64,000 bases of DNA from Phanerochaete sordida (Eukaryota; Basidiomycota; Agaricomycetes; Polyporales; Phanerochaetaceae): the NCBI GenBank assembly GCA_019973155.2, contig BPQB01000079.1, positions 62,001 to 126,000 of the forward strand, in the 5' to 3' direction. The stretch's first letter is position 1; the number at the start of each line of letters is the position of its first letter. The translations under genes and the position numbers were made by a program. This document shows, piece after piece, positions 3,076 to 57,657 of the stretch. Under the pieces are notes generated by a model. That model had not been told where the DNA came from, searched no databases, and worked only from the letters and a program-made list of their open reading frames with translations.

Positions 3076-3157
3076 GGCGCTATAGCCAAGTGGTTAAGGC
3101 GATTGATTAGAAATCAATTCCCGTTTCGGGGCGCAGGTTCGAGTCCTGCTGGCGTCG
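3076..3157 (+). tRNA. tRNA-Ser (anticodon AGA)
   Basis: A full cloverleaf can be folded. The acceptor stem GGCGCTA pairs with TGGCGTC (7 bp, two G-T wobbles). The D-arm region is GCCAAGTGGTTAAGGC. The anticodon stem ATTGA/TCAAT encloses loop TTAGAAA, giving AGA. A long variable arm with stem CCCG/CGGG is typical of class II tRNA-Ser, and the T-arm contains GGTTCGAGTCC. There is no intron and no encoded CCA, as expected for a nuclear eukaryotic tRNA. It decodes UCU and, through inosine, UCC and UCA. A T-run follows within about 10 bases. Confidence 0.95.
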
Positions 3158-3991: not shown

Positions 3992-4366
3992 ATGCAACCT
4001 GGCACCTCGCACGATATGCCCTTCATCCGCATCGTCGGCCGGCCCGAGATCACGGACGAGCTGCAAGCCGAGTTCCAGCTTATGCAGCACTGCTACGCCC
4101 GCCAGGATCCCAGCATCCGGTACCGCGGTTTCGAGATGTCGTTGCGGGCCAACACACCGAAGCCCGCCGTCCCAGCGTCCGACAGGCTCCGCGGCATCTG
4201 GATCGGGGCCCCGACCACCGTGGACGACCTCGTCACCTCGTCGCTCCTCCTGCCGCTCGACGTCGCCCGCCAGTGCAAGCACATCACGCACCGCCGCGAG
4301 GGATTTGAGATCAAGGAGGCTGTCCAGGTGTCGAGCTTCGAGGTTGTCCGCCGGGGCTGGTTCTGA
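3992..4366 (+). CDS. small cassette protein, copy A (124 residues)
   Basis: Single-exon ORF; the ATG at 3992 follows a pyrimidine/CA-rich leader. The family is not recognised. It is related to the small proteins at 20546 and on the minus strand at 43863. The shared parts are a central YRGFEM-like segment and a C-terminal HRREGFEIKEA segment, matching YRREGFEMLEARAHIAAVR in the other two. The N-terminal half is diverged. It is soluble, with no signal peptide or membrane span. As in the other copies, a conserved tail of about 440 bases follows, here starting about 130 bases after the stop. The family context supports it as a real gene; the function is unknown. It is the most diverged of the three heads. 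Confidence 0.6.
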   Translation: MQPGTSHDMPFIRIVGRPEITDELQAEFQLMQHCYARQDPSIRYRGFEMSLRANTPKPAVPASDRLRGIWIGAPTTVDDLVTSSLLLPLDVARQCKHITHRREGFEIKEAVQVSSFEVVRRGWF

Positions 4367-4499
4367 GTCTTGGGATCACACAAGGGCACTGTCGTCTCCC
4401 TCTTTGTCGCCTCCTCGCCCCTCCCGTAGCACCTTGTACTCTCGGACGCTGGGCGTCTCGACTCACTGCTGACCCCCTTTGCTCCCCTTCCCCCCACAG

Positions 4500-4939
4500 C
4501 TAGCACGCCACGACCCTCACTGCCGCGCACGCCCGACCCTCTGGACCCTGGAGCTTACGGTAGGCCCGGCCGCGGCCTGTCGGGTGCCGCCGCAGGTCGA
4601 CCCTGGGGTTTCTGCTCGCTCTTCATCATCGACCTGCGCTCACCTCCCTGCCGTCTACATTTCTAGCTCCAAGGACCGACAACAAGGACCGGGGGAGGTC
4701 CTGGCCCCCCTCGCCCGGTCGGCGGTGTCACCGCGTGAACATCGTGAGTACTCTCGACCGTTGACTATGTACCACCAGAGGCTTACATCTGCTTCCTCAG
4801 AAGCGTTCACGGGCAGCTGGCACCATCCTGAGGGAGGGACGGCCGTGGCGCCAAGTCACTTGTCCGCGGCTGTTCTGGCGCAGACCTTTCCGTGGTCCTC
4901 AGGATTAGTACTCGCGCAAGCGAGGAACTAACATGCGCT
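4500..4939 (+). repeat. cassette tail, copy A (spliced, structure-capable)
   Basis: This begins right after an acceptor-like CCCCCACAG at CTAGCACGCC and ends at CATGCGCT. It is clearly similar to 21398-21835 and to minus 43012-42580. Visible parts are a probable 57-base intron (4744-4800, GTGAGT...CTCAG); ATCCTGAGG (4825-4833), perfectly complementary to CCTCAGGAT (4897-4905); an inner GCGCCA/TGGCGC pairing; and a hairpin at 4906-4930 with stem TAGT/ACTA, stem CTCGC/GCGAG and GNRA loop GCAA. One frame is open from 4479 to a TAA at 4929-4931. That frame survives splicing because 57 is a multiple of three, so coding and RNA-structure explanations both remain open. Confidence 0.75.
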
Positions 4940-5214
4940 TCTACGACCTTGAGGGCAATACCGGCGACGCTAGGATCGACGAGGTGGACATATACTGGTC
5001 ATTGTAGTGCGCTAGCATTCTTGTAACCGCGGTCCTTTATACGCATCACGCTTTCATGGCCCTACTTCGCTCAGACGGGTGCGAGTGAGGTGGCGAATTA
5101 TACTATCCGGTATTCCGAGTCAATAAGCAAATTACGTGTAGATTACATGGTCCGAGAACAGCCCTAATAGTGACGACGAACGAACGATGGCGAAAGCGAC
5201 GAAGGAGAGCGCGA

Positions 5215-8200
5215 CTATGCTACCAGAGCAGCCAGCCTCCGGAGGTGTGGCACGTTCAGGTATGCGGGTACATAGGTCTCTAGACCAGACACGTCTCTTG
5301 GTAGTGGCAGTTCGTACGGGCCCACTTCTTCTGTCTCTGGCGGAAGGAGCAGGTGGTCGTTCCTGTCGTTAGCGTTGACGCGAGATGCCACCACACGGAG
5401 GATCTCGGGCGAGATGGGAGCCTGCACGGCACATCGTCAGCGAAAGAACGATGGCAGACAAAACGCTCCCGTACCTCGTAATCCGCGACGTAGTAGTTCG
5501 TGCACATGCGTTGTATTTGCGTGGGCGTCAGCATCCAGCATACGTCGTAAATGATCTCGATATCCGCGGGCGTAGCCTGCAGAGTCTGTCAGCGCGAAGC
5601 CATAGTAGCGAGAGCGGCGCGTGTACCTTCTTGAGCTGGAGCAGCTTGGTGGCCTGCATCAAGTGCTCCAGTTGAAGAGTGCCCTCTGGCATGTCGTGAG
5701 ACTTGCACCACTCCTCTATACGAGTGATATTATATTGTATTTGCATAGCTAAGCGGGGATTAGCATTGGTCGATTGCAGTGAACAGTCAATGCGACAGAC
5801 GTACCTCGTTTCCATGAGCAGAAGTTGCGTCGCATAAGCAGGTCATTAAAGCTCGTGACGCCGATCAACTTGAGCAGCTCGGTCGTGACCTGCTGGATGA
5901 CCGACTCCTCCATGTAGTAGCTCTTCAAGCTCCTCCAGACCTTGTTGAGCAAGTTAAGGATGTCGTCCATGCTGTGGGCAGGTTGGGTATTCGCGTTGAT
6001 GAGCCGGTTGAAGAAGCGTCCACCACCCTCGGTCGTGGTGAAGCCGGGTAATGACTGGCTCTCGATGAGCGCGGGTATCACCATCTTCTGGAGCCGCTTC
6101 TTGGTCTCAAGCATCCAGGTGTGGTAGATGTTGTACTCTAGGCTGTCTAGATCGTGCTTGACGACAGAGACGAGGCGCTCGTAGTCACCCCATTCGAATG
6201 GCCGAACCGCGTTCTCCTCGCCCGGGCCGATGCCCTGGAGCATGTCGCTCTCGGCAATGCAGATGAACGACAGCATCTCGTGGACATTCGACAGCCAGAA
6301 GATGCCGGGAACAATCGCGTCCTCGCCCGTGAAGGACTGGAAGCTTATCAGTACCAGAGGAATTTAGGATAGCGCGGCGAACATACCATAACGTGGCTCT
6401 GGATGGTCTGCATGACGTTCGCGAGGAAACGCTCGCTCTCGGCGATGAGACCGTACTTCCACATCTCGTTCGTGACGAGGCTGATCAAGTTCGCGGGGAA
6501 CAAAATCTCCTTCATCACTGGCGGGTTGTTGGCGTTCGGCGCCGGGATCTTGAGACCACGAATGAGGCCGTCCAGGACGTCCTCGTCGAGGTGCTTGATA
6601 TCCTGCATGAGACGAATCTTCTCCTCGGCTGGGTCATCGTAGATGTCCGAGAGGCTGTTCGAGCGCGGGAAGCGGGGGACGCCATCTTCACCGTTGTACG
6701 CGACAGAGACCGCACGTGGGTTCGACGCCTGACTCTTCTTCGCCATCATCATGAGCTCGTCAACAGATGTCCTTTGGTCAGATGGGCTGATAGCGTAGAC
6801 GCCAGCCGAGCTGTGGCGACGCTGGTGTGAGCGACCGTTGACGGGCGCGGCGCCGTTTGAGCTGACGCCGTTGGCGATCGGTGGCTCGGCCAAACGCAGG
6901 TTGGGTGCGAACGTCGGCGACAGCGGCTGCTGGTCGCGTCCGCGAGACGTCAAGGCGTTGAGAGCGTTCGCGCGGTTGAGCTGCTCGCGCAAGCTGCTGA
7001 CCTCGTTCTTGAGCGTCGTGATTACGGAGCTGTCCTCGGCGGCGCGCTGAGGAGCGGCAGCGGCGGCCTTCTGAGCCTCCTCGAGCTGCGTCGCCTGGCG
7101 AACAATGTCCCCTGTCAGCTTTTGTATCTTCTCTTCCTGCTCCTGGGCGCGCGCCAGAGCCTCCTCAAGACGCCTTTCCACGTCGGCCTTCTGGAGAAGG
7201 AGCTCGTCGCGCTGGGAGATCTCGGCCTGGGCTTCCTGAAGACTGCCCTGCAGCTGCTTCGCGCGCGACTCCGCGTCCTCATGCTTGCTCGTCATGTTCG
7301 CCAACTGCTGCTCGATCTGGACCAGCTGAGCCTCGAGGCTCTTCTTCTCCGCCGTCCGCGTCTGCAGTGTCTGTGTGAGCTCAACGACCTTGTTCTCGAG
7401 CCGGTAGGAGATCTCCTTGAACTTGGAGACCGAGCGTGCTTCAGCCTTGAGGGCCTTGAGCTCCTTCCGTGCCAACCTCCGTCGGAGACATGACTGGAGA
7501 TAGATGACGTGCTTGACGTCGGTACGGAACGATCTCCGTGCAAGACTAGCGGCAAGCATACTTAGCAAACTGTCGAGGCATGCATAGAATAGAACACTTA
7601 CGCTCCACGAAGCAGACTTTGCAGAGTTGTAGCAGCTTGTCCTCGCCTGGATTCGCGGAACATGCGACGAGCCTGAGCACCACGAACGCGGCTCTGGAAC
7701 TTGACGACCGCATTGCGAACTTCGAGGAACTTCCGCCTCTGGACGAACCTCCGGATCGCTGTCTGCATCCGGATTGCAGCGGTTGTCCGTCGGACACCCT
7801 CCACGAAGCGCTGGGCGAGGATACCACGCCACCAGGTCTGAATTTTGATGGTAGCGTGACGCAGCTCCTGGTACTTCTTGACAGCCATCTTCCTCCGCAT
7901 GTTCTTCTGGACGATGGTAACGAGCGCGTTCAGGCGGTTCGAGCGTAATGACTCCAGTGCGGCGAGCATTCCAGCACGGAAGAAAATCTTCGTCAAGCCC
8001 GCCTGGTACTTGTCGGGATCGTTGATCGTGCGCTCAAGGATGAGATTACAGAGCTGCTGGAGCTCCAAGTTCTGGATCATAGGCTTCCACTCCGTTGAGT
8101 GCACAAGCATGTAATACCTGGAGACACGTTAAGATCATACCCGTAGAACAGGACAGGCCACTTACCGCTCAGCGAACTCTTCGTATGTCCATCGCGTAGG

Positions 8201-10738
8201 ATAACCCGCACAGCTGATGCGAATGGTCTCGAGAACACCGCAAGCCCGAAGTTGACCGAGAACCTGACCAGGAGTAAACTCCCAAGCACGCTTCGCTTCG
8301 TTAGGCTTGATACAGCGAATGTAGTGCACGTTCGTCATCCCGAGAGTCTCCATAAGGTTGTTCAGCGAAGCCTTGAAAATCGACGCCTGCGTCGGCTTCT
8401 TCACAGCTGCACCAGGTCGCTTGGGCCCGCTCGAAGCCTGTGCCATTATGGAAGTGCGACCCGGGTCAGGAATGAGCGATTGCCGCTTCGAGCTATTGCT
8501 AGAGACGGTCGGAGAAGCGGGTGTAGCATCGGGGGCCTTCGTGGCAGCGAAAGCGGCGTCAAGGACCTCCTTCAAGAAAGCGTTTTTGGTCTCCATGAGC
8601 AGCGCCATGTGCTCGTCAGGAACAGTGTCACGGTTCTTCTCGAGGAAGCCCTCGACCTCGTAGGTAACATCCAGAGCGTAGTGGGCAATAGTGAACGCAG
8701 AATTGCCGAAGCGAGGCTTCTTGAAGACATCCTTATTCTCCGGCTTCACGAGCTGGTTGTTGAGCTTCTGCAGGAAGGAGGCATCGGTACCCGAGGGAAG
8801 ACGGGACTCCTCGTCTAGCAGAGCGAGGACACCAAGCTTCCCCTCGATGACGTCGATACATGGCTGGTTGTCGGAGAAGTCGATGAATGTCCAATTGATC
8901 TTCTCGCGCATGTACTCCTCTTGTTCGAGCTTGAAGACGTGTGCATTGAACTAATGGACAACAGTCAGCCTCACTCTTCTGAACGACGACAACCAGGTGC
9001 TACTCACCTCTTGCTGTAGTTTCTCATTGGCATAGTTGATCGAGAACTGCTCGAAGGAGTTCTATGATAACAACATGAGTATATGTGATGGTGAATACCT
9101 GACTGAGAGGCATACCTTCTTGAAGTGCTCGAAACCGTAGATATCCAGCACACCAATGAACATCTCAGCCTTTTCCGCAGCCTCTCCGTTCTCCCCAGCC
9201 AAACTCTCGTTGACGATCGCGACGAGCCATTCGAATAGACACGCGTAGACGAATTTCGCGACGGAGTCTCGAACGACAGTAGCCTGTGCGCCGTTGAGCG
9301 CGGTGATAATCTTCTCGGAACGCGTCGTGATCTGTTTCTTGATTGTCCACTTCTTGAAGTCGGCGAGCGGAACACCCAGGAAGCGGGTCGCCAGCTGAAG
9401 TGCTGAATCCGCGTCGTCAATGTTCGCGTCGTTCCGGATCTGGGACACCTGGATGTTTCCGAGATGGAGCAACGCCGACAACAGTTTGAACACAGCCCAC
9501 TGCTTCTCGATACCGATACCGATGGTCGAGAGAGCGGTCTGGGTCGTCCTGAACTCTTCCGCGTCGTCAACGCCGTTGATGGGTGTCGAAGCCGGGCCTC
9601 CTTGCTTCAGGTAGTGGAACTTGGAGACGTCGGCGTCCAAACCAAGATCTTTCCGCTCCTTCAAAGGCGCACCTGCACAGAGCTGGTAGAAGATGTGGTA
9701 GTTCCGCTCTGTGAGAGGCTGGAAGACGACGCGAGAACGCTCGAGGAGGTATGTGCGGATACGAGCACCGACAATCTCTTGCTTGCCATCGAACAGAATC
9801 TGGAAGGGCTCTCAGTATGCACCTTCGCGTTTCTTTCGCGTCAACGCACCTGAATATATTTACCGAATCGTGAAGAGTTGTCGTTACGGGTCGTTTTCGC
9901 GTTACCGAATGCTTCGAGCACAGGGTTGGTAGCCAGGATCTGACGTTCGACCTCAGAGGATTCGTCCAGCGATGTCTTGGTTTTGCCGCGACCTTTGTCA
10001 CTCGGGGGATTGACGGAGGCCAGGTAACGCATGATGAACTTGGCAGACTCTGTCTTACCAGCACCACTACGCGAAGGTCAGCGCGGCCCATAGAGAGATC
10101 AAGGTGTGACGAACCTCTCTCCAGAGACGATGATTGTCTGCCCGGTTCCATCTCTGCTCATCGCAGTGTACGCATCTTCCGCGATAGCAAACAAGTGCGG
10201 CTCCAGCTCTCCCCTCTTTCGGCCACTATATGCTTGGATGATCTCGGGGCCGTAAAGCGTGACGCGCTGGAACGGATTCATGGCGATGAGCACGATACCG
10301 GAGTACGTGTAGATGCTGTGTTGCGCATAGCGATTCCGGATGGTGTGCAGAACTGTATGGCGGCTTCAGAGACAGCAAGCCAGCCTGTAGCGAGGGGTGT
10401 ACACACCTGAAGGCTCGTTAAGATGGGATAGCGTGGCCAAATCATCGGCGGTCTCTAGTAACGGTGGGTTTCGTAGTGGTGGTAGACCTTCGCGGCCGTC
10501 CTTAATCTCCTTCACTGTGGTGTTGACGACAACTTCCTGCGAGATGAGCTCAGTCGCCGCCGTCGCCGAGCACAAAGCGTAGTATGGCGGTACACACCTT
10601 GCCGCGCTCATCCTTGAAGACAAGCTTGATCGTGTCGTCTGCGTTCTTGGTGACGGCGGTGACCTCGCCCGATATCCAGCTGAGCTCTTTGTCTGGGAAC
10701 CATACTTGGGTTCCCTTGCTGTATATGTTCTCCGCCAT
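5215..10738 (-). CDS. MYO2: class V myosin heavy chain
   Basis: Actin motor for polarised transport of vesicles and organelles. The start [16 protein letters not shown] at 10738 opens the SH3-like N-terminal domain. The motor follows, with its P-loop region near 10050 (ahead of [13 protein letters not shown]) and [31 protein letters not shown] switch I sequence. The converter ends at [13 protein letters not shown] near 7980. About six IQ motifs follow (about 7930-7600), then a heptad-rich coiled coil (about 7480-7030), a Ser/Pro-rich linker, and the cargo-binding dilute (DIL) domain from about 6700, containing [15 protein letters not shown], to the end. The stop is at 5215 after a final exon starting [16 protein letters not shown]. 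It is split by many short introns. Length and domain order fit fungal Myo2/MyoE. No break is seen. Confidence 0.95.
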
Positions 10739-20545: not shown

Positions 20546-20947
20546 ATGCCTCGCTTTGCCGCTATCCGTAACGTCCTCCGCGGGTCGAAGGACATCACCA
20601 CCCCCAGCACCTCGGCCGCCGACAGTGTCAGCACCGCCAGCAGTTCGCCCCGCCCCTCCGCCCCGGCCCCGCTCCCGCCCGTCGCCTTCGTCTCAATGCA
20701 CCGCCGCACCGACCTCATCTCGCTCGCCGAGGCGCAACGCACGCCCGAGATCGTCTACCACTCCGTCAGCGCGATCCCGGACCCGACTCCCGAGCCCGAC
20801 CTCGACTTCCCGGCACACGACTACCAGCTCACGCTCATCCCGCTCTCGGTCGCCGCCGCCCGACACGACATCAAGTACCGCCGCGAGGGCTTCGAGATGC
20901 TGGAGGCGCGGGCGCACATTGCGGCTGTTCGGGCGGAGCTGTTCTGA
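20546..20947 (+). CDS. small cassette protein, copy B (133 residues)
   Basis: Single exon, start MPRFAAIRNVLRGSKD at 20546. The family is not recognised. It is nearly the same as the minus-strand protein at 43863-43456: identical first 16 residues, a variable Ser/Thr/Pro/Ala-rich middle, then IVYHSV, IPDPTP, LIPLSVAAAR and a C-terminal block YRREGFEMLEARAHIAAVR. This pattern of conserved ends and a free middle suggests selection on the protein. It is soluble, and the N-terminus is basic. A homologous 3' region of about 890 bases follows it, as in copy C. Confidence 0.7.
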   Translation: MPRFAAIRNVLRGSKDITTPSTSAADSVSTASSSPRPSAPAPLPPVAFVSMHRRTDLISLAEAQRTPEIVYHSVSAIPDPTPEPDLDFPAHDYQLTLIPLSVAAARHDIKYRREGFEMLEARAHIAAVRAELF

Positions 20948-21835
20948 TTTCTTCCTGCTTTCGCGTTTCTCTTTCGTTGTGCTCTGGGGCTCAGCGGGTG
21001 GGCGCGGCCTGGGCTGAGGGGCCCAAGGCCCCAGGGATGCTGCAGGCGGGGCTTGGCCCCAGGAGGCTGGCAGTCCCGAGGTCGCGTACTCGCTGGGCGG
21101 GCGGTCGGCGCAGGAAAGGCGCAGCCTGCGTCGCTCGTCCGTCCGTGGGTGGCCAACGGTTTGCCCCGTCCTCGTCCCGTCTCTCAAGGAGGCGGCGGCG
21201 AGGGCGGCGTCCTCCTGCCCTTGGCGGGACACTTGGAAAAGATAAAAGACGAAAAAAAGCTGAAAATAGGAAATTAGAAAAACAGGACTTGGCTTCGCTA
21301 CTGGACTCGGACGTGTACATAATACTTAATACTCCGGGACGCCTAGTTCCTGGGGCTAGCACTGACGCACTGACGCTTGCTCCCCTTGCCCCCGCAGCTA
21401 GCACGCCACGACCCTCACTGCCGCGCACGCACGACCGCCTGGACCCTGGACCATACGGTAGGCCCGGCCGCGACCTGTCGGGTGCCGCCGCAGGTCGACC
21501 CTGGGGTTTTTGCTCGCTCTTCATCATCTACCTGCGCTCATCTCCCTGCCGTCTACGTTTCTAGCTTCACAGGAGCGACAACAAGGACCGGGGTTGATTG
21601 GCCCCCTCGCCCGGTCAGCGGTGCCAGCGCGCGAACATCGTGAGTGCCCTCCATCCTTCACCTTGCGCGACCACAGGCTGACCTCTGCTTTGACAGAAGC
21701 GTCCGCGGGCAGCTGGCACCATCCTGGGGGAGGGGCGGCCGCGGCGCCAAGTCACCTGTCCGTGGCTGCCCTGGCGCAGACCTTTCCGAGGTCCTCAGGA
21801 TTAGTACTCGCGCGAGCGAGGAACTAGCATGCGCT
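20948..21835 (+). repeat. cassette 3' region and tail, copy B1
   Basis: The first part (20948-21390) is G+C-rich and resembles minus 43455-43013, including GGGCTTGGCCCCAG and the GGACT...GGACTCGGAC segment. The tail starts at 21398 after CCCCCGCAG. It has a probable 57-base intron (21640-21696), ATCCTGGGG (21721-21729) able to pair with CCTCAGGAT (21793-21801) using one G-U, and a hairpin at 21802-21826 with loop GCGA, also a GNRA tetraloop. The tail frame ends in a TAG at 21825-21827. The 3' boundary is CATGCGCT at 21828-21835. Against copy A, most base changes in the last 120 bases are transitions that alter the hypothetical protein. Confidence 0.75.
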
Positions 21836-21913
21836 CCCGTCTTTCGTCGACCGGCCTACGCCGCTTCCGTCCAGCCATATGGTCACTCACCGCTTAACCC
21901 CGAGCCTCACTCG

Positions 21914-22112
21914 GACATCGTGAGTACTCTCCGCCTCTGACTGCGAGCGAGCCGAAGCTGATGTCCGCGACAGAGGCCTCTGCGGGCTGCTGGCACCGCC
22001 CTGAGGGAGGGGATCCCGCAGCGCCAAGTCACCTCTCCGCCGTCGCCCTGGCGCAGCCCTTTCCGTGGTCCTCAGGATTAGCACTCGCGCAAGCGAGGAA
22101 CTAGCATGCACA
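21914..22112 (+). repeat. tandem partial tail, copy B2
   Basis: A second, shorter copy of the tail follows B1 by about 80 bases. It starts at ACATC, the exon end just before the probable intron (21920-21973, 54 bases). It contains CCTGAGG (22000-22006) complementary to CCTCAGG (22070-22076), and the hairpin CTCGC/GCGAG with loop GCAA at 22084-22097. The outer TAGT/ACTA pairing is weakened here (TAGC). The reading frame is still open and ends in TAG at the same place. The duplicated unit is therefore the intron plus the structured end, without the small protein. Confidence 0.7.
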
Positions 22113-23241
22113 CTTGTCTTCCCTGGGCAAGCCTGCGACACCATGGGTCCACTCCGTCGCCACCCAGGTGGCCCCCTCGACCTCGAGCCTCGGCGCCAGG
22201 TGGCGTCGCGCCCGCAGCGACGATGCCGCAGGCGTGCAGAGCCGCCCTGCGCGACTCGTGTCTGGTGGCGCGGACTGTCCTCTATCATTTCGTGCGTGGT
22301 CTCTTTGCCGTGTCCTCGTATGTCCTGATCCGAGTCTTCGCAGCGTGCGCGCAGTGCCAGGCCAGCACCGCTCCAGGTCCCCGCTCCAGTAACAGCGACT
22401 CGAAGCATGGCCGTGGGATCTGTGGCGAGCCACGCCCATCGCTCGCGGGCTATGCGGCGATGCTCTAGCGGGTGCACGCCGCTCCAACCTCGACCCTTTC
22501 CACAACGTTCACTCGTGAAAGACTCGCTTATCGCAGTGTCGTCATAGACCTGTCGAGTGTGGCGCCGTAACTCTATCCGTGAGTCGCGTTCCTCTTTGGC
22601 TGCGTCTTTGAGAATTTTGACTTAGTGTGCTCTCAGCCATATGCTGGCCGTCTGGGCTATCTACTTACTCGAAACCGTCACGAGCTCGACCATGTACTTG
22701 GTCTTCGGGGAAGATCGCAAACAGTTGTCAATGTTGAAGGTGGCTAGATAGCGGTCTAGCCGTATCGTGCGGAGTCTCCTCATTACGTTTATTGTATGCC
22801 TATAAATGCAGCGCGCCTGAGCTGATAAACTTTCAGGATCGTATGACGTTTCCCCTCATCCATCGCCGGGTAAGTAAGGCTCTGATCTCTTGTTGAGTAT
22901 CATCACCCTGACGTCTGTTTCATTCATTCGCATCTGCCTGAAGTTCATCTGAAGACGTTGGGCTCCTACTTTGAACAACTTGCTTCGCGTTGTCTGAGCA
23001 AAGGAAGGCTTAGAGGCAATGCAACAACCTCGCTCGAGATTTCACACATCCATATACGCGATGGATCAGATCTGACAGGTCTCTTGTAGCTAACCTCTTA
23101 TTCACATCTGTGCGCCGCATCATCCCCTCGTTCCTCTTGAGGTGCGTGGTCGAGACTATGGCGAAGACCAGGCCCCTTGGAAGCACGTTGCATGAGTGGA
23201 CAAACTTTTCGCCACATATCAAAACCTTGGGACTCTAGGTT
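22113..23241. other. intergenic upstream of P450 no. 1
   Basis: I see no supported gene. ORFs at 22100-22470 overlap on both strands and have no domain. A TATA-like CTATAAATG lies at about 22800 with no gene behind it that I can identify. Confidence 0.4.
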
Positions 23242-23287: not shown

Positions 23288-25527
23288 ATGGAGGCATCCC
23301 TGTACATTGTTCTCCCCGTTCTCGGAGCCCTGGTCTTCCTCTCGAGGATGCAGAAGCAAGGCAAACAGCCACCAGGGCCCAGAGGTCTCCCTATCGTGGG
23401 CAATATATTCGATATCCCGAAAGCCCGTGAGTGGCTCACATACTCGAGTTGGAGTCGCAAGTACGGTACGCCATTTTTTGAGGCCTGATTGCACCGTCGT
23501 TTGTGCTGAGTGGCTTCCCTGAAGACTCTCCCATCGTCCATCTGCGCCTACTGAACACGGATATGTATATTCTCCACTCTCGCGAAGCTGTGAACGACCT
23601 GCTCGTCAAGCGATCGTCGATCTACTCCGACAGGTACCGAAGATGCTCCACTCTCGCGAATACTGATGTCCATACGGTAGTTCAGGGCTCAATCGACAAT
23701 GCTAAACCTGTACGTCTGCACTTTTATTGTGCCGCTCATGTCGTTCAACGGTAGCAGAATGGGCTGGCAGAGGCTCTTCGCACTTGCACCTTACGGTGAC
23801 GATTGGAAGGCTCGGACACGCATCTTCCAACAGCACTTCAACTCTAGTACCACTGTGAAGTATCGACCAACCTTGCTTACAGCAGCACACCTCCTTTTGT
23901 CGAATATTCGTAAACGACAAGATGCCTTTTTGGAGCATTTCAGACAGTAAGCACTCTTTGCTCCAGTCTCCTTCGGTAGCTCTGATCCTCCAGCCTCGCT
24001 GCATATTCGATTATGGGTGTTACGTACGGCATTGAGGTCCGCGCACAGGATGATCGTTATCTAGAAGTCGCGGAACGCGGCACTCGCTGTCTCGCTCGAG
24101 CAATCAAGGCGGGCGGGCATGCAGGTATACTTTTTCCTCCTCCCGCTTGCTCCCGCTTGTACTGAATATCGTTCAAGTTGACGTTTTACCATTTCGTAAG
24201 CATTTCATGCCGAAGCGACGCGAATAATTTACAACGCCTTACGGCTTTTCGCAGTCCGCTATCTGCCAGCATGGGCTCCTGGCGCCCAGTTCAAGCGCGA
24301 TGCCATCGAGTGGTCAAAGGACGTGACTGCGATGCTCGACGTACCTTTTGAGTTCGTCGAACAAAACCTGGTCGGCATATTCCAGGCGCCTTCCGCCGGT
24401 TTGCTGATGTATTCATTCAGAATGGCGGAGTGCAGAATACTTCTGCTGTGGGCACTGTCTTGCGAGATATTGAGCAGAGCGAAGACCAATCCGGCGCGAA
24501 GGAGGTCGCCCGCGACGCGTTCGGAACCGCATACGTCGGTCAGTTGCACACCGGAATTGTAGACATGTTCAACTGACATCTGCCCTGTTTGCATAGGCGG
24601 AGCCAATACAGTTTGTAAGCTGTGTTGTCACGCAACCCTGATACCTAACAGTTCCCTAGGCTTATGGGGCCCTCACTATTTTTACGCTTGCAATGCTCAA
24701 GTATCCCCATGTCCAGGTGAAGGGCCAAGAGCACATCGATCACGTAGTGGGTAGAGAGCGTCTGCCTGACTTCAGCGATCGTGAAGCACTGCCATATATT
24801 ACCGCTATTGTTCAAGAGGTTTTGCGGTACGTTGCTTGTCACTTGTAACAGACGTCGCGTGTCTGACATCTCTCGAAGCTGGATTGTGATCAGTCCGCTT
24901 GGTACGTACACCCGATGAGCCATCTGCATCTCGAGACTAATCAAATTCTCCTAGCTGTGCCGCATCGCCTGACAGTCGACGACGAGTATGAAGGGTGCCA
25001 TTTTCGCGCAGGCTCATTGTTTGTCGGGAATGCCTGGTGAGTACTAGCGAGACGGGAAAGTGTGCCAGAAGACACGCTCACCGTTTCAGGGCAATTCTGC
25101 ATGACGAGACAAGATACCCGGACCCAGAGGCATTCATGCCCGAGCGCTACCTCGCCCCAGACGGCAAGCTCGACGAGAATGCGCCAGATCCCACTGAGGC
25201 CTGCTTCGGGTATGGCAGGCGGATGTGCCCTGGCCGTCAGTTCGCGCTTGAGGAGATTTGGATCGCAGTCGTGAGCCTGCTCGCGGCCTTCAGCATCGAG
25301 AAGGCAATCGATGAGTTCGGCGCGATCATCGAGCCCAGCGGAGAAGACATGACAGCGTCCGGAGCGGTCTAGTATGTCGGCTGTCCGTTTGCCAATGGCG
25401 GATCTACTTGCTTACGAGAGTCAGCCATCCGGCGCCGTTCAAGGCAGCTTTCAAGCCACGCCATGAGAAAGCAGACGCACTCATCAGGGACGCAGCTGCA
25501 CAGGCCAGCGATGATAGCGCTACGTGA
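23288..25527 (+). CDS. cytochrome P450 monooxygenase no. 1
   Basis: Microsomal haem monooxygenase; substrate unknown. MEASLYIVLPVLGALVFL is the membrane anchor, then [24 protein letters not shown] is the helix C region. Exons join as SDR/AQSTMLNL/MGWQRLF. The helix I region is FGTAYVGGANT. DREALPYITAIVQEVLRW holds the ExxR motif. The haem loop is [11 protein letters not shown] near 25210. The C-terminus continues past a TAG through an intron to YHPAPFKAAFKPRHEK and stops at 25527. A 50-base intron (EQNL to NGGVQN) begins GTCGGC, and another uses GTTTGT. There are about a dozen short introns, and with these splices the gene is intact. It is close to P450 no. 2 ([17 protein letters not shown]). 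The family number is not assigned. Confidence 0.88.
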
Positions 25528-41355: not shown

Positions 41356-42579
41356 TGGCAGGTTGCTCGGCGAAGGTCACTGCTATGCAAACGTGCTATT
41401 GAGCCTGGAAGCAGGATTTGTCAGTATGTGCGAAAGCGAAGGGCGGTCCAAAGCGAAGAGGTCATTGACCTACACTGCGTTTTGGAGATGGACGAGAGAG
41501 CGAGGAGCATTTGCATGTTTTCTTGGCAGGCTAAACTGCGTGGGAGATGGCGGAGGACCCTTTCCAAACTTCTTTGCATGAGACGCGCGCGCGACGCCGC
41601 TTGGACACATCTAGAGAAGCTGATCATGTCCTTCCCGCTGTTACCGTGTAAGGCGGTTCCCAAGACAGGCACAGAACGAACCTAAATCTCCAAAGAGCTA
41701 AATGCACGACAGGGAACTTGCAGGCTCTCGGGATTTCTGTTGTACTGTATGGCAGCAGGCCGCTGTTTGCATCGAACGGATGAAGTTGGAGAACTCACTG
41801 GATCTATGCACTCTCTCCGCCTGGGGAAGCAGACAGGAAGTGGAACGCGTCGTGATCCGCGTCAAATTGCGGGAGCACAAGCTGCACAGGAATCGCCGCG
41901 AGTCGATGCCAAGGTTCGGCCAGACCTGAGGCTTTGGTGCGGCGTACCTGCAATGGAAGCTTAACAACGAGATGGCTGGGGTCTGGAACCTGTGTGATTC
42001 ACGATCTCATGACTTCTCAAACGGACAGAGAGGTGGCGCCAGCATTAGAATCTGCGCACGATTAACGCAGATTTTGATTTTGGGACCCCATCTTCAGCTA
42101 CAAAGCTCACGGAGCATTCGAAGTTCGGTTCGTTCTATGCGGCCGCCTGGTGCACAGAGACCTGCCCATCTTTCGCTGCTTGATCAACGACACCGACATG
42201 ACAGCCCTGACAGCGTCGCCAGAAAGTAGCAAGTTGTGGGAGCGAATACCTAACAATGCGGCCGTAATTAGCACGGCGATACGTCGAAAAGGAAGGATTG
42301 ACATACCATATGGTCGTTAATGTGTCTTCGGCGGGAGGCTCGGTGCGAGATTGATGACGAGAAGCTATGGTGCACAGGACGATCGACTTCGACGTCGGGC
42401 GACAGAGCCTGGGCGAATAGGTGGGGCGAAAACGCGACAAATCAACGAGATCTGAGGCGCGACGTCGCGCGCAACAGTTCCTACGAAGTGGTATCAAGCA
42501 GGAATGGTAGTTTCAGAAAGCGCTACGCACCAGGCCGAAGGACAGAGTCGATGATTATCAACGTGATGGCTGAGAAAAG
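41356..42579. other. intergenic, upstream of the TPR-CHAT gene
   Basis: I see no gene. Short ORFs on both strands lack domains and consistent splicing. It may carry the TPR-CHAT promoter and leader. Confidence 0.45.
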
Positions 42580-43455
42580 CGCATGCTAGTTCCTCGCTCG
42601 CGCGAGTACTAATCCTGAGGACCACGGAAAGGTCTGCGTCAGGACAGCCGCGGACAAGTGATTTGGCGCCACGGCCGTCCCTCCCTCAGGATGGTGCCAG
42701 CTGCCCGCGAACGCTTCTGTCAAAGCAGATGTCAGCCCCGACTCGCGAGTGATCAAAGTATGAGGGTACTCACGATGTTCACGCGGTGACACCGCCGACC
42801 GGGCGAGGGGGGCCAGGCCCTCCCCCGGTCCTTGTTGTCGCGCCTCTGGAGCTAGAAAATCTCGGTGGGAAAGTAGAGTGAGCGTAGGCCGATAAAGAAG
42901 AGAAGGCTCGAAAACCCAGGTCGGCCAACCCAGCGGCACCCGATGAAGGCCTCCCCAAGGCACACCTCGATGTCCACGTCGGTCTTCAGCAGTGAGGGTC
43001 GTGGCGTGCTAGCTGCGGGGGCAAGGGGAGCAAAAAGGTCAACGAGCAGGGCAGCCTCTAGAGATCCCGAAGTATTATGCCCGAAGGCTTAGATATTATA
43101 ATGTGTCCGAGTCCAAGGCAGACACGAGTCCTGTTTTTCATTTTTCTCTTTTAAAATGTTTTTGTGCGCTTCATATTTTCCGAAGAAAGTTCCATCCAAG
43201 GGCAGAAGGACACCGACCTCGGGAACGCTCTCCTTGAGAGAGGCCCGGAGGGCGGGACATACGCCAGCGACTCGCGGATACCAGCCAGACACGGAGGCGC
43301 GAATTCCATGTCAGCGGCCCTACGAGAATTACGCATCGGTGTCAGCCTTCTGGGGCCAAGCCCCACCTGCGGCGTCCTCGGAGCCTTGAGCTCCTCAACC
43401 CAGGCCTCGCCCATCCGAAGCGATCCAGAAAGCGAAGCGAAAAGGAAGCGGACGC
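42580..43455 (-). repeat. cassette 3' region and tail, copy C
   Basis: Read on the minus strand, this follows the small protein at 43456. The first part resembles 20948-21390 (GGGCTTGGCCCCAG, GGACTCGGAC). The tail starts near 43012 after CCCCCGCAG and ends at about 42580 with CATGCGCT. It has a probable 57-base intron (42773-42717), the complementary pair at 42692-42684 and 42620-42612, and the GNRA hairpin (loop GCGA) at 42611-42587. The inner GCGCCA/TGGCGC pairing seen in the other copies has a mismatch here (TGACGC). The middle part (about 42990-42850) is more diverged than the ends. The tail frame again ends in TAG inside the hairpin. Confidence 0.75.
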
Positions 43456-43863
43456 TCAGAAGAGGTCCGCACGCACCGCCGCAATATGCGCCCTCGCCTC
43501 CAACATCTCAAACCCTTCACGACGGTACTTGATCTCGGGACGGGCGGCGGCGATCGCGAGGGGAACGAGTTTGAGCGGGTAGCTGGGCGTCGGGAAGTCG
43601 ACCTCGGGCGCGGGGGTCGGGTCGGGAATCATGCGAACGGAGTGGTAGACAATGTCGGGGTTGCGTCGCGCTTCAGACAGGGAGATGAGGCCGGAGAATG
43701 TCGTATAGCAGGCGGGGTTGCGAGAGTTGGTGGACGTGCTGATGCGGTCGGCGGCCTCGATGGTGACGGCGGAGGTGGCCGCAAGGGAAGAGGCGGAAGT
43801 GGAGGGGGAGATGGTGTCCTTCGACCCGCGAAGAACGTTACGGATGGCAGCAAAGCGAGGCAT
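43456..43863 (-). CDS. small cassette protein, copy C (135 residues)
   Basis: Start MPRFAAIRNVLRGSKDT at 43863; an upstream in-frame stretch to 44052 exists, but conservation with copy B begins at this ATG. It shares with copy B the N-terminal 16 residues, LISLSEA, IVYHSVRMIPDPTPAP and the end YRREGFEMLEARAHIAAVR plus ADLF. The middle (SAVTIEAADRISTSTNSRN) is unrelated in detail but similarly Ser/Thr-rich. No known domain. A TATA-like TATATACA lies at about 43965-43972 upstream. It is in inverted orientation relative to copies A and B. Confidence 0.68.
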   Translation of the reverse strand: MPRFAAIRNVLRGSKDTISPSTSASSLAATSAVTIEAADRISTSTNSRNPACYTTFSGLISLSEARRNPDIVYHSVRMIPDPTPAPEVDFPTPSYPLKLVPLAIAAARPEIKYRREGFEMLEARAHIAAVRADLF

Positions 43864-44640: not shown

Positions 44641-47086
44641 TCACATGTCCTCGACTACTGAATCCTTGATCAACGCTACGGCGTTTGGATGACGCGGCTT
44701 GAAGGCTGCCTGGTAAGGCAGCGGATAGCTGGCAATGCGTTCTGCTCAGCACATCACCACTTCTCCGACGAAGCGACCACATACCAGACCGTCCCCGACG
44801 TATATTCCAAGCTGGGCTCGACGACAGCGCCAGAAGCGTCGACAGCTTCCTCGATGTTGAACACAGCGACGAGGCTCGCGACGACAATCCAGATCGAGTC
44901 GAGTGCGAAGTAGCGGCCGGGGCACATCCGTCGGCCGTACCCAAAGCAGGCCTCGCTCGGATCGGGCGCGGAGGCGTCGAGCTTGCCGTCCGGGGTCAGG
45001 TAGCGCTCTGGTACAAAGGCGTCGGGGTTAGGGTACCGTGTCTCGTCGTGGAGGATGGCCCTGGAGCACGTGTTAAAAGACAACCACTCGAGGGCTTTAA
45101 TCGCGCACCATGAGTTGCCGATGACCAGCGAGCCTGCAGGGAGGTGATACCCTTCGTATTCGTCGTCGACCATAAGACGGTGCGGTGCCGCTAGCGACTA
45201 TGTGTTAGGTACCTCCAGAGTGGGTCGGGACGCCTACCAAGTGGAGCAACCATGATCCAGCTACGAGGTGAAGTGAGTCAAGAATATATGGTACCACACG
45301 TGCAACATACCGTAGTGCTTCCTTCACGACAGCTGTTATGTACGGAAGGGAATCGCGGTCTCCAAAATCGGGGAGACGCTCGTGTCCAACGACGCGGTCC
45401 AGCTCTTGCTGTGCCTTTCTCTGCACGTCCGGAAACTTGAGCATGGCTAGGATGAATGTGTTCAAAGAGGAGTAGGTCTAGTAGCGCAGTTGTCAAGGTG
45501 GCGACTGGTCGTACGATACTCAAGACTGGACTGACCGTATCGGCTCCCCCTAACAGAAGTCGTCAGCACGAGACTTTGAAGTAGCTCATGTTCCAGTATA
45601 GATGGAGACCCACCTGTGTATGCGGTCCCAAATGCCTCGCGAATGATAGTCTCCGTCTCAGGCCGCTTCTCACTATCATCGAGCTCTCGTAGGAGTGAGG
45701 CTACGATTGAGGTGTTCATCTCCCCTGCCGCCTAAACTACCTGTAAGCCCGATGCGGAGTGCAAGCGCAATGTAGTACTTACTATGTCTTTCTTGACATA
45801 CGTGTACGGTCCGTCGAACATCGCTGAAACAGTATCGTACCACTCAGCAGCCTCGCGCTTGAAGTGCATACCAGGAAGCCAGGCAGGCAAGTGGCGCACT
45901 GGAATAAAGTTAGCGCATACACACAGATATGTAGTGCAGACTCACAAAACGGTACGAAGTTTACTGTCGGAGCATGAGTCGATGTGCGGCTTATGGTGCT
46001 AGGGCACGTACCTGCATATGCGCCGACATTCACAATCTTCGCCAAGGACTGTAGCGCCTTCTCCGCAGTTTTGACGTAGGGGTCATTGTCCGGGCGCACC
46101 TCGATGCCAAACGTGATACCAAGTATGGATGATCCTGCGTGACTAGACACCAGTCAGCGGTTAGTACGACTCCCCAAACATATAAAGACTGACTATCGTA
46201 TGTGCTTCATAAAATCTTCTGGTGTAGTGAGGAAGTTGAGCAACAGGTGCTGTGTCGTTTTCAGCAGCTTCGGACGATGCTTCGGCATGGCACTGGTGTT
46301 GTAGTTCTGCTGAAAGATGCGTGCGCGAGCCTTCCATTGGTCTCCGTATTTGGCAAACACAAAATTGCGCTGCCATCCTACGCTACGCGCCATCAGTAAA
46401 GCGGACGCGAGCTAGGTCACAGTGTCCGGCTCACAGATTGGCCATGACAGATTCTCCTCTGGACGATTCACCGTGATGAGCGACAGGTTGTCTGTGATGG
46501 AGAGGCGCACCTGTCGGAGTAAATGGAGGACCGCTTGACGAGTAGGTCGTTCACAGCCTTCTCTGAGTTGAGGACGACGACATGGGTGTTGAAAAAACGC
46601 AGATGGATAATATCCGATCCTGGAAGCAGACGTTGAGAATATGTCGATATTGTGCCGAGCTCGAGGACACACCGTAGGTACGACTCCACTGATTATATGC
46701 AAGCCATTCGCGAGCTTTGGGTACGTCAAGAACGTTTCCCACGATCGGAAGACCCCTACAGTGACGACGGAAAATACCGCACAGCACTAAGCGCCTGCGC
46801 ATTCCGACTGCCCTCTCGTTCTGAATAGCTAACCCATGTATCTTGCCAAATTTTTTGCAGGATGATGAGAGTAATATTTATGTTATACTGTCGAGTCCTC
46901 GTGAGTATAGAGGGGGTACAACGAGCAGGAGCGCAGGGGTGTGGAAATCCCTCGGCGCCTTTTTGGTGCGTTATTTTCCGTCGTCACTGTAGGTCCAGGC
47001 GGTAGCCTTCGTTTCTCCCGCAGGACGAGGAGGAGGATACCGATGAATAAGGCGGAGAGAGCAGAAAGGTAGAGGGTGAACTCCAT
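44641..47086 (-). CDS. cytochrome P450 monooxygenase no. 2
   Basis: Microsomal P450; substrate unknown. The start is [20 protein letters not shown] (membrane anchor) at 47086, then RRLPPGPT. The first intron is long for this genome (about 245 bases, 47038-46758-side region), and exon 2 is [19 protein letters not shown]. Further exons: [103 protein letters not shown] (ExxR), [37 protein letters not shown] and haem loop [12 protein letters not shown] final intron leads to [16 protein letters not shown] and the stop at 44641. It is closely related to P450 no. 1. I found no certain lesion, though the exon after SDR is not resolved. Confidence 0.85.
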
Positions 47087-53026: not shown

Positions 53027-54924
53027 ATGACACAGGAACTTGCGCGCTGCTGTACCGCTGTCTCACGATCTGGAGCTGGCAGCGAGCGCAAGGAGCAAAC
53101 TGTCTTCAAATACGCGTGCAGTCGTTTCACCAAGCTGCCGGTCGAGCTAGTGGAGAGCATACTGGCGAGCCTGGACATGCGCGATATTCTGAATGGGAAG
53201 CTGGTGCGCTTGGAACTTTGCTAACCCTTTGAGCCTTGATAACGACGCCCTTACTAGGTTTGCCGTGCTTGGCGCGACCTCATTCGGTCGTCGCTGCAGC
53301 TGCAGTACAAGGTCGAGTGCTCCATTGCCAGCGTGAGCGACGGTCGCCCGATCTCCGGAATCAACCTTCTCGAACGCACTCGACGCGTCAAACGATGGCG
53401 GAACGCCTGGAAGACCCTTCAATGGTCCCAGAAGTACGACGCCACATATCCTTGCCCCTGGCTGGGCGATCGCACTTTCCATGTACAAGGTTGTGTCCTC
53501 GGCGATTTCAACACCTATTCTGGCGGTACATTCGAATTTTACCGCATAGGATCGGAAGCACGACATATTGACTCCAAGCAGTGGGCGGTGGCCGACATTC
53601 TTGGCTCTCTATCGTACGGGAGCTGGACATTTAGCCCTGAGGCGGACCTACTTGCAGTATTACGGATGTACGTATCTTCACGCTGGTTTGGCAGTTGATC
53701 AGTTGAACAATTTCTGTGCATAACCAGTCATCAGAACGCCCGCATGGTCGATGTATGCTTTTACTCTTGTACGACGGGAAGGCCACACCCAGCAGCATCA
53801 ATGCCCACCATTCCACTCACCCTCCACGCACCCGCAGTCGTCGACGACTCGTGGGAGATTGAGCTCACTGTCTGTGACGATCTAGTTGGCGTCTTCGTAT
53901 ACGACGATAACGAAGGACGGACAGAGGTCTGGGTGTACAATTGGGAAGAGGGTAAACTCATTTTTGTAAGTCATGACCGCTCTTCCTTGCGCGCAGACCA
54001 TCGCTCATCTTTCTTACAGAGCGTGTTCTCCGAGAGCGACAAAGACAAGCTCCTACCAGATCACTTCGATTTTCTCAGCCGAGATGTTGTTCTGTTTACA
54101 GCCTTTGGGCATGACACGAATACACTCATAGCTGTGGACATCCGTCATACCATCTCGCCACGCTCCCGCTTTCAAGATCTGTTCATTGTCAGCAAATCCG
54201 TGTCGCTCGATCTACCAAGACTCAGCGGTGGCACGGTATACCAACTCTCTACGATCGCGTGCTCGTCCATGCGTTCGAGCATCTGCGGGGAGGGCATCTT
54301 CGGCTCGCGCCACGCCAACACGCTCATCGTGCTCATGCTCGAGCTCACCGACCAACACGGCGCAGAGCACTCCTACGATCTGGTCGTCTCCCCCGCTTTC
54401 ATCCTCTCGCGATTGGAAGACGTCTCCCGGTACGGTGCGGGGCCTTGGCCTAGCGGCCCTGCGCGCCTTCGCATGCTCACTTGGCCAGACTGGCGCACGC
54501 ACACCCGGATATTCCGCACACTCAGCGTCCCCGAGGTGCCCGTCCACGGCTCGCGGTACCTCACCGCCAAGGCGCTGCCGGACGGGAAGTACCGGCTTGT
54601 CCTGCGCGACTTCGACACCCTTTCCGCGCTGCGGCTCGATAAGGCTGCGGGCGACGCCGACATCCACGAGGGCATTGAGGGAGTGGAGGACGAAGACAAG
54701 CTTTGGGACCAGGAGGCGTGGGTAGGCGCACCGTATCGAGAGGTCGAGTCAGATATCATTGTCGAAGACGAGGACCGCGTCTTCCTCGCAGAGGACGGCA
54801 TTGTCGTCGCGCGACATAGGGACCACCTGGTAAATGTCGACAGCACCAAGTACGTCCTATATCAGCTCTTGTGTCATCAAATGACTGATGAGGCTCCTTC
54901 AGACTAGAGATTTACTCTATCTAA
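53027..54924 (+). CDS. F-box protein, lineage-specific family, copy 2
   Basis: Start MTQELARCCTAVSRSGAG at 53027. The F-box is FTKLPVELVESILASLDMRD, spliced to VCRAWRDLIRSSLQLQYKVE. Then RTRRVKRWRNAWKTLQWSQK, FEFYRIGSEARHIDSKQW, WTFSPEADLLAVLR, an intron, HQNARMVDVCFYSCTTGRPH, VWVYNWEEGKLIF, an intron, HFDFLSRDVVLFTAFGHDTN, VPVHGSRYLTAKALPDGKYR and EDEDRVFLAEDGIVVARHRD. The last intron joins TK to LEIYSI and a stop at 54922-54924; without it the frame would end in an unrelated tail. About 550 residues. The long part after the F-box has alternating strand-like blocks, possibly a propeller (inference). It probably recruits targets to an SCF ligase. Confidence 0.82.
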
Positions 54925-55446
54925 GATAGAATTATATCCCCGAGTATTGTACCACCGCCTGGAACAACTTGAAACACAGAAGCTTGTCGATGCCGGGACG
55001 ATCTCGGCGACGAATACAGAGCTTCTGGCAGAGTGGCCATTCGTGAAGGACGTCTCGCAGCCGGTGTGGTAGCGTTGATTTTATTTCGCTGGGCATTGTT
55101 GGGACTTGTCGTAAAGTTGACTACTCGTGACTTCGTGGGACGCAGCCAGGATGGTGCCCAGCTCGAGGCAAACCTGCTTCAAATATTCGAGAAGGCATGG
55201 CACAATAAGCTGAAGAATTTCTCAGTTGTAAAGAACCGTTACACTGGTGCTGGTCTTCGCTGTAATCCTAGTTTATGCTGGGCGTACGCCACGCGTGCGT
55301 GTCCGAGAGCCCGACATCAGATTAGGCGCCAGCGCGGCGTCGGATTCGAATTCAGGGTCCCGGTCATCAGGCTTGCCGCAGACCGCGACATCGTCTTCTC
55401 CTTCAACCCCAGGTTCCAACGCGGCCTATAAAGCTCCGTCAGTATC
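54925..55446. other. intergenic between F-box copies 2 and 3
   Basis: About 520 bases with no supported gene. The frame at 55033-55431 has no domain and overlaps the expected promoter of copy 3. Confidence 0.5.
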
Positions 55447-57341: not shown

Positions 57342-57657
57342 TACCAGTCCTGTGCACGGGGACTGCGAAGCGTTTCCCGCCGAGGAATTCCTAGCCTCAG
57401 ACCTAACGTCCGCCTTTTTTGTTCACTCCACGTCGGTAGCGTTTTGATGAAGGCCTCACATGCATAACATAGACACAAATAATTGAATAATTGCTATTGC
57501 CTTGAGTTTTCTAATAAGTACGTCTGGAAGATCAGTCCTGCGCGTGAGCCTCAGGCGGCCCATCGTCAAGCGGGTGGCGTTAGACGCTGACCGGGTTCAG
57601 AAGCATTGACGCGACGCCTCTTCCTTGAGCGTGGACATCGACCTCAATCTTCTCGTC
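57342..57657. other. intergenic between F-box copies 3 and 4
   Basis: About 315 bases holding the end of copy 3 and the promoter of copy 4. No other feature is seen. Confidence 0.5.

What the first reader, a model, noticed from the sequence alone, without database searches (positions are those of the whole stretch)
3992..4939. Repeated two-part cassette: small protein followed by a spliced, structure-capable tail (copy A)
Three main loci (this one, 20546-22112, and minus 43863-42580) share the same order: a small paralogous ORF, then a conserved tail that begins at CTAGCACGCC right after an acceptor-like C-run plus CAG and ends at CATGCGCT. Tail length is nearly constant (about 433-440 bases). 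The conserved ends and mixed orientations are what one expects of a dispersed unit. I know no described element with this layout.
Basis: partly seen in the sequence, partly recalled or inferred. Interest (0 to 1): 0.8.

Follow-up and report, generated by a model that had tools for sequence, protein, structure and literature searches.

The report
Gene tail ending in self-cleaving ribozyme
The repeated "tail" behind a family of small fungal genes ends in an RNA with the fold of a hepatitis-delta-type self-cutting ribozyme, and the same RNA occurs at many places in this wood-rot fungus genome, often right beside splice-like signals, which hints at an unrecognised link between RNA self-cutting and splicing.

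Summary
The repeat is real: five full tails (433-440 nt) lie on one contig of Phanerochaete sordida. The tail's sharp 3' end (CATGCGCT, 4939) is the last helix strand of an RNA with HDV-ribozyme strand order. P2 crosses P1 (pseudoknot), and all 6 P2 pairs show two-sided changes. A model built without the contig's own copies finds all four window copies at E 4e-10 to 9e-15. The fold fits the fungal HDV-variant ribozymes of Li and Breaker 2017; Rfam does not recognise it.

Pattern searches give 74 sites on 35 contigs; 44 copies were read in full. In 23 of these 44 a donor-like GTRNGT starts 6-16 nt before the predicted cut. A TATAAATA box lies upstream in 16 of 31 copies, reverse strand 0 of 31. 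In the cassette the tail is far better conserved than the small protein, so it behaves as an RNA module. It is neither a plain 3' region nor a shown transposon. Self-cleavage and splicing are inferred, not shown.

The parts
3992..4366 (+). small ORF of cassette A (124 aa, diverged family member)
   Evidence: translation; 25 aa at 56% identity to B; no Pfam match
4475..4499 (+). pyrimidine-rich tract and CAG, putative 3' splice site before the tail
   Evidence: 54-84% identical between copies, B-D 100%; consensus only, no transcript
4500..4939 (+). tail, copy A
   Evidence: blastn
4560..4666 (+). putative intron 2 of the tail (GT...AG), unusually conserved
   Evidence: 92-97% identical among A, B, D, E; 57-60% against C
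4744..4800 (+). putative intron 3 of the tail (GTGAGT...CAG)
   Evidence: 65-77% identical, B-D 96%, between better conserved exon-like segments
4827..4939 (+). HDV-like ribozyme, copy A; predicted cut between 4826 and 4827; P1 4827-4833 with 4897-4903, P1.2 4837-4845 with 4867-4875, P2 4877-4882 with 4934-4939, P3 4883-4886 with 4894-4897, loop E 4907-4910 with 4925-4927, P4 4911-4915 with 4920-4924, conserved C 4928; C4897 can pair in P1 or in P3, not both
   Evidence: independent model match 4823-4942, E 9.2e-15; pair counts
20546..20947 (+). small ORF of cassette B (133 aa)
21398..21835 (+). tail, copy B, with ribozyme at 21723-21835
   Evidence: model match 21719-21838, E 1.3e-12
22000..22112 (+). 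second ribozyme behind copy B (partial second tail)
   Evidence: model match 21996-22115, E 4e-10
43456..43863 (-). small ORF of cassette C (135 aa)
42578..43012 (-). tail, copy C, with ribozyme at 42578-42690
   Evidence: model match 42575-42694, E 1e-13

Best explanation
The tail is a conserved noncoding 3' RNA module whose last 113 nt form an HDV-like self-cleaving ribozyme of the fungal loop-E variant, one of a genome-wide family (74 pattern sites). In the C79 cassettes the ribozyme lies downstream of a small-protein ORF, probably in one transcription unit. When the transcript folds it should cut itself at 4826/4827, releasing the ORF and upstream exons with a 2',3'-cyclic phosphate end and leaving the ribozyme on the downstream piece. 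In many sister units the same ribozyme starts 6-16 nt after a donor-like GTRNGT, so cutting and splicing would compete for one pre-RNA. Shown here: the repeat, the fold with compensatory changes, the genome-wide family, a TATA box upstream of about half the copies examined, and the decoupling of tail and protein divergence. Inferred: self-cleavage, splicing, one shared transcript, and the competition.
For: Strand order and pseudoknot with two-sided changes: 26 copies, 90.5% of cells paired, slid controls at most 51.1%; 15 copies from outside C79, 97.1% paired, 13 of 21 pairs with two-sided changes, slid controls at most 50.6%. Independent model finds all four window copies. 60 gapped-pattern sites against 0 for the reversed control. 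Features match PMC5640933 section 7, where two examples cut in vitro. GTRNGT within 30 nt of the cut in 25 of 44, 23 of them starting 6-16 nt away; control windows 8 of 44, 2 of 32, 0, 2, 2 and 0 of 30. TATAAATA upstream in 16 of 31, reverse strand 0 of 31. Exon-like segments and ribozyme better conserved than intron 3.
Against: No activity or transcript data. No Rfam HDV model matches even at E 10 in the two stretches searched so. The count of further pair types does not exceed shuffles (466 of 500, 301 of 500 reach it). P4 pairs in only 65.4% of cells in the 26-copy alignment (92.0%). P1.1 and the extra nucleotide between P2 and P3 could not be settled. The C79 tails have neither the adjacent donor nor the extra P0 helix. 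Copies are related, so counts are not independent events. Intron 2 is as conserved as the exons, and copy C is mosaic there, so gene conversion may explain part of the conservation.
Confidence: 0.7

Rival explanations
1. The tail is a mobile or amplified element (retrozyme-like, inverted-repeat type or introner-like) that carries the ribozyme; the small gene is a passenger or landing site.
For: Dispersed copies on 35 contigs, inverted pairs on C14 and C161, near-identical units of over 1 kb; five putative ribozyme introns.
Against: No target-site duplication seen for the C79 tails; full tails only on one contig behind one gene family; no transposase or reverse transcriptase noticed in the interior of the C161 pair, by eye only.
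Confidence: 0.25
2. Ordinary duplicated gene family with a conserved 3' region; the ribozyme fold is a fossil with no present activity.
For: Five tails in a local gene cluster; B and D are 95% identical over gene and tail.
Against: The proteins diverged to 36% (B-E) or a 25-aa match (A-B) while the tails stay 86-88% identical; compensatory changes across the family; the motif lies outside this gene family at most sites.
Confidence: 0.15
3. The fold is a ligand-binding or protein-binding RNA (riboswitch-like control of splicing), not a nuclease.
For: Adjacency to donor-like sites and very conserved joining strands.
Against: Strand order, C-G pair at the cut and conserved C in J4/2 are those of an active ribozyme class; no common gene function was noticed, though contexts were not surveyed systematically.
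Confidence: 0.08

Closest known systems
Fungal HDV-variant self-cleaving ribozymes (Li and Breaker 2017, PMC5640933; abstract, introduction, sections 7 and 15 and passages read)
   Same: HDV strand order, C-G pair at the cut, loop-E-like AGUA/GAA beside P4, several genomic copies with varied neighbours.
   Different: The extra nucleotide between P2 and P3 is undecided here; sites in one genome are far more than the average there (230 in 26 species); placement beside donor-like sites and behind a TATA box is not mentioned in what I read.
Large HDV-like ribozymes with a P1.2 domain (PMC4908430; abstract and passages seen)
   Same: A hairpin in J1/2 between P1 and P2; here 4837-4845 with 4867-4875.
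   Different: Different organisms; whether it speeds cutting here is untested.
R2 and L1Tc retrotransposon HDV-like ribozymes (PMC3774820, PMC4035085; abstract openings in a search listing)
   Same: Dispersed HDV-like ribozymes.
   Different: Those lie at the 5' end of a retrotransposon; here the ribozyme is the 3' end of the repeated tail and no reverse transcriptase was found.
CPEB3 intronic ribozyme (PMC10919898; abstract opening in a search listing)
   Same: HDV-like ribozyme (family recalled) within an intron, with the timing of cutting against transcription held to matter.
   Different: One mammalian gene; here many copies, 23 of 44 starting 6-16 nt after a donor-like site.

Membership tests
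HDV-like ribozyme | Strand order P1-P2-P3-P3'-P1'-P4-P4'-P2' with P2 crossing P1 | tested here: met
HDV-like ribozyme | Conserved catalytic C in J4/2 (recalled C75) | tested here: met
   C106 of the first sequence invariant in 26 of 26; catalysis not shown
HDV-like ribozyme | P1.1 (second pseudoknot, one or two pairs) | tested here: inconclusive
   at most one A-U pair can be drawn by eye
HDV-like ribozyme | Self-cleavage before P1 | not testable with these tools
   needs an in vitro assay
HDV-like ribozyme | Match to an Rfam HDV model (a convenience, not a definition) | tested here: not met
   gathering on the window: only a tRNA; E up to 10 on L050 and on 4700-5000: no HDV model
Fungal loop-E HDV variant (Li and Breaker 2017) | C-G pair at the cleavage site | tested here: met
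   26 of 26, 15 of 15
Fungal loop-E HDV variant (Li and Breaker 2017) | Loop E replaces part of P4 | tested here: met
   AGTA facing GRAA in the alignment (B2, not in it, has AGCA); by sequence only, the paper's figure was not seen and the loop-E letters are recalled
Fungal loop-E HDV variant (Li and Breaker 2017) | Extra nucleotide between P2 and P3 | tested here: inconclusive
   G4883 pairs with C4897 or is the extra base if C4897 pairs with G4833
Retrozyme or transposon | Target-site duplications or direct terminal repeats | tested here: inconclusive
   none seen by eye at the C79 tails and no direct repeat in L068; other families not tested
Introner-like element | Similar introns in unrelated genes, homology ending at splice sites | tested here: inconclusive
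   five putative ribozyme introns share a block of about -95 or -74 to +21 or +25, but some pairs share further upstream blocks, two are tandem duplicates, and splicing is unproven

The most novel reading that the evidence does not exclude
This fungus has a large class of promoter-bearing transcription units, one branch coding for a small protein and most apparently noncoding, in which an HDV-like ribozyme is placed a few nucleotides downstream of a 5' splice site or beside another splice site, so that spliceosome assembly and ribozyme folding decide kinetically between a spliced RNA and a self-cut RNA. In some families a further helix (P0) pairs the exon end, sometimes with the donor, to sequence after the ribozyme and would hold the two cut pieces together.
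Probability: 0.3. Interest if true: 0.85.

Novelty: new variant of a known kind. Interest (0 to 1): 0.65.

Why it matters
Genomic self-cleaving ribozymes are widespread, but few have a known job (recalled). A fungus with dozens of related copies, about half of the 44 read starting within 16 nt of a donor-like site and about half of 31 behind a TATAAATA box, would be a culturable organism in which the purpose of genomic ribozymes and the race between self-cleavage and splicing can be tested. It also shows that Rfam's current models miss a large, covarying set.

Tried and rejected
Rfam: gathering on the window gave only a tRNA; E up to 10 on L050 and on 4700-5000 gave two and three unrelated weak hits. 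Pfam on small proteins A and B: nothing. Core pattern in viral contigs (3 stretches) and bacterial/archaeal genomes (27 stretches): none has the P3/P1/P2 context by eye. The independent model scores these pattern-selected loci at most 21.9 bits; two of them have E 0.0016 and 0.0048, nominally significant but chosen for the core pattern. Whole-tail folding is weakly better than shuffles (z -1.78, 3 of 100 shuffles as good) and decides nothing. P2 was first counted on A3 one column out of register (16.7% paired); one search is the corrected count. P0 as a universal feature: rejected. A strong P0 (score 25 or more, 10-14 pairs) is in 12 of 44, and a thirteenth (L099) has 10 weaker pairs; no C79 copy has more than 8. 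Swapped downstream flanks do as well or better in 0 of 39 (five fam2 copies), 0, 0 and 1 of 41 (fam3), 5 of 42 (two L036-type copies) and 7 and 6 of 42 (C16), probably because those families are related.

Limits of counts: the 44 are held copies passing a fixed expression; L034, L035, the L068 copies and most likely L100, L101, L102, L105, L107 and L111 are not among them. Of the 25 with GTRNGT, L008 and L108 carry GTGTGT at 30 and 20 nt and are probably not donors, leaving 23. The TATA count uses 31 held copies, one (L055) probably a chance match. The 74 sites are 60, 9 of 13 (C7, C11, C17 and C27 not accepted, by eye) and five C79 copies (B, its second copy, C, D and C79:15043); about twenty of the 60 were seen only as the matched pattern. 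One searched control box set (AAACAA, ACGTGAC) has no control.

Full report
WHAT IS THERE. Cassette A is a 124-aa ORF (3992-4366) followed by a 440-nt tail (4500-4939). Blastn of the tail against the own genome (40.8 Mb, 222 contigs; window = C79:62001-126000) gives 15 matches: five full tails, all on C79, and partial ones. The best protein hit of copy B is PsYK624_141560 of Phanerochaete sordida (95% identity) on a contig of 152689 bases, the length of C79. Homologues at 65% exist in P. carnosa, others on environmental contigs. Small proteins A and B have no Pfam match.

THE TAIL ENDS IN A RIBOZYME FOLD. The distant matches share only the 3' part. A 17-base core pattern with up to two mismatches gave 105 hits against 39 for the reversed control. 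Lined-up copies show the order P1 - J1/2 - P2 - P3 - L3 - P3' - P1' - GATNAGTA - P4 - GRAACYNRCA - P2', the order of the HDV ribozyme (recalled; nested double pseudoknot per PMC4908430, passages seen). On 26 copies P1 pairs in 100% of cells with three of six pairs changed on both sides; the crossing helix P2 pairs in 96.2% with six of six; P3 in 99.0%; P4 in 65.4%, because its length varies. Overall 90.5% of cells pair; sliding the partner strand drops this to at most 51.1%. Four of five measures beat all 500 shuffles; 'further pair types' does not (466 of 500 reach it). With 15 copies from outside C79, 97.1% of cells pair, 13 of 21 pairs changed on both sides, further pair types again not exceptional (301 of 500). 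A covariance model from those 15 (P2 not modelled as pairs) recovers all four window copies: 4823-4942 +, E 9.2e-15; 42575-42694 -, 1e-13; 21719-21838 +, 1.3e-12; 21996-22115 +, 4e-10; the next window hit has E 1.1, and bacterial loci selected for the core pattern reach at most 21.9 bits (E 0.0016). E-values are rough, as the tool states.

WHICH RIBOZYME. Li and Breaker 2017 (PMC5640933; abstract, introduction, sections 7 and 15 and passages read; figures and supplements not seen) report 230 fungal HDV variants in 26 species with a C-G pair at the cut, a loop E in place of part of P4 and an extra nucleotide between P2 and P3; two were shown to cut. The first feature is met in 26 of 26 copies, the second by sequence, the third cannot be decided. 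A hairpin in J1/2 (4837-4845 with 4867-4875, read by eye) resembles the activating P1.2 domain of PMC4908430.

TAIL VERSUS GENE. Tail and protein do not diverge together. A and B proteins align over 25 aa at 56%, B and E at 36%, B and C at 55%, B and D at 95%, yet the tails A-B and B-E are 88% and 86% identical over 462 and 455 columns. By segment, leaving out the recent pair B-D (96-100% in all seven segments): putative intron 4744-4800 65-77%, exon-like 4667-4743 78-95%, 4801-4826 92-96%, ribozyme 88-96%. A variable intron between conserved noncoding exons suggests selection on the RNA. Against a simple reading, putative intron 2 (4560-4666) is 92-97% identical among A, B, D and E, and copy C is only 52-60% identical to the others in exon 2 and intron 2 (a mosaic), so gene conversion or a second functional element is possible.

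THE GENOME-WIDE FAMILY. The gapped core pattern finds 60 sites, control 0; a second finds 13, control 1, of which I accept 9 by eye. With five further C79 copies this makes 74 sites on 35 contigs; 44 were read in full by one script. Of 31 held copies with longer flanks, 16 have TATAAATA upstream on the same strand, 354-1071 nt before the end of J4/2, and 0 on the other strand. Within 120 nt before that box, 13 of 16 have AAACAA or AACAAG and 7 of 16 ACGTGAC, without a control. No C79 tail copy has the box; gene A has TAAATA and gene C TATATA about 105 nt before the ATG, gene B none of the searched boxes. No long coding frame was recognised by eye in the C14 and C161 units or between TATA box and ribozyme in L049 and L050; no systematic coding test was made. 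Of 14 neighbour pairs under 8 kb, 9 are divergent, 5 tandem, 0 convergent. C14 and C161 are inverted repeats.

SPLICE-SITE ADJACENCY. In 25 of 44 copies GTRNGT lies within 30 nt before P1; in 23 it starts 6-16 nt before. Control windows farther upstream give 8 of 44, 2 of 32, 0 of 30, 2 of 30, 2 of 30 and 0 of 30; the 8 are probably mostly the C79 donor-like GTGAGT (4744, 83 nt before P1). Copies are related within families, so these are not 25 independent events. Examples: AAG|GTGCGT then P1 (L051), AAAAG|GTGCGTAT then P1 (L030), AAAAG|GTGGGTCC then P1 (L116). In five copies (L047 twice, L049, L050, L051) the ribozyme fills a putative intron ending CTGACC..TCTAG; the shared block runs from about -95 or -74 to +21 or +25, with further upstream blocks shared by some pairs, and the two L047 copies are tandem duplicates. 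In L010, L053, L054 and L110 a CAG|GT donor-like site follows P2' directly, likewise in L034. In 12 of 44 a strong extra helix of 10-14 pairs (P0) joins the exon end, sometimes with the donor, to sequence after P2'. The C79 tails lack both the adjacent donor and P0; their ribozyme follows an acceptor-like CAG or TAG.

HOW IT PROBABLY WORKS. Most likely the RNA cuts itself before P1 during or after transcription. In the cassette this would sever the ORF-bearing part from the 3' remainder; in donor-adjacent units it would race with splicing. All of this is inference from anatomy plus the published activity of the variant class.

NOVELTY. The ribozyme is a member, or close variant, of a known class. 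The copy number, the TATA box, the splice-site placement and the coupling to a small-gene family were not seen in the listings of seven paper searches; the library lacks most subscription papers, and only PMC5640933 and PMC4908430 were opened with success.

Noticed in passing
3076-3157 (+): tRNA-Ser(AGA) gene, 82 nt.
   Followed up: no
25087-25339, 44811-45063, 60044-60131: Diverged cytochrome P450 gene copies (Pfam p450 in open frames at 24992-25369 +, 44757-45197 -, 59855-60136 -).
   Followed up: partly
54472-59376: Three direct copies of a 189-nt segment, 2.3-2.4 kb apart; two overlapping long frames have no Pfam match.
   Followed up: partly
8162-8911 (-): Open frame with a myosin motor domain match.
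   Followed up: no
4560-4666 and copies: Putative intron 2 of the tail is as conserved as exons in four copies and keeps TCGGGTGCCGC even in diverged copy C; perhaps a second structured element.
   Followed up: no
L022, L023, L024, L026: Nearly identical ribozyme units lie near both ends of C182, the start of C28 and the end of C159, perhaps subtelomeric repeats.
   Followed up: no
L030 and L031 (C14), L068 (C161): Head-to-head ribozyme units as long inverted repeats: arms about 790 nt at 93% on C14, several arms of 80-259 nt at 91-98% on C161.
   Followed up: partly
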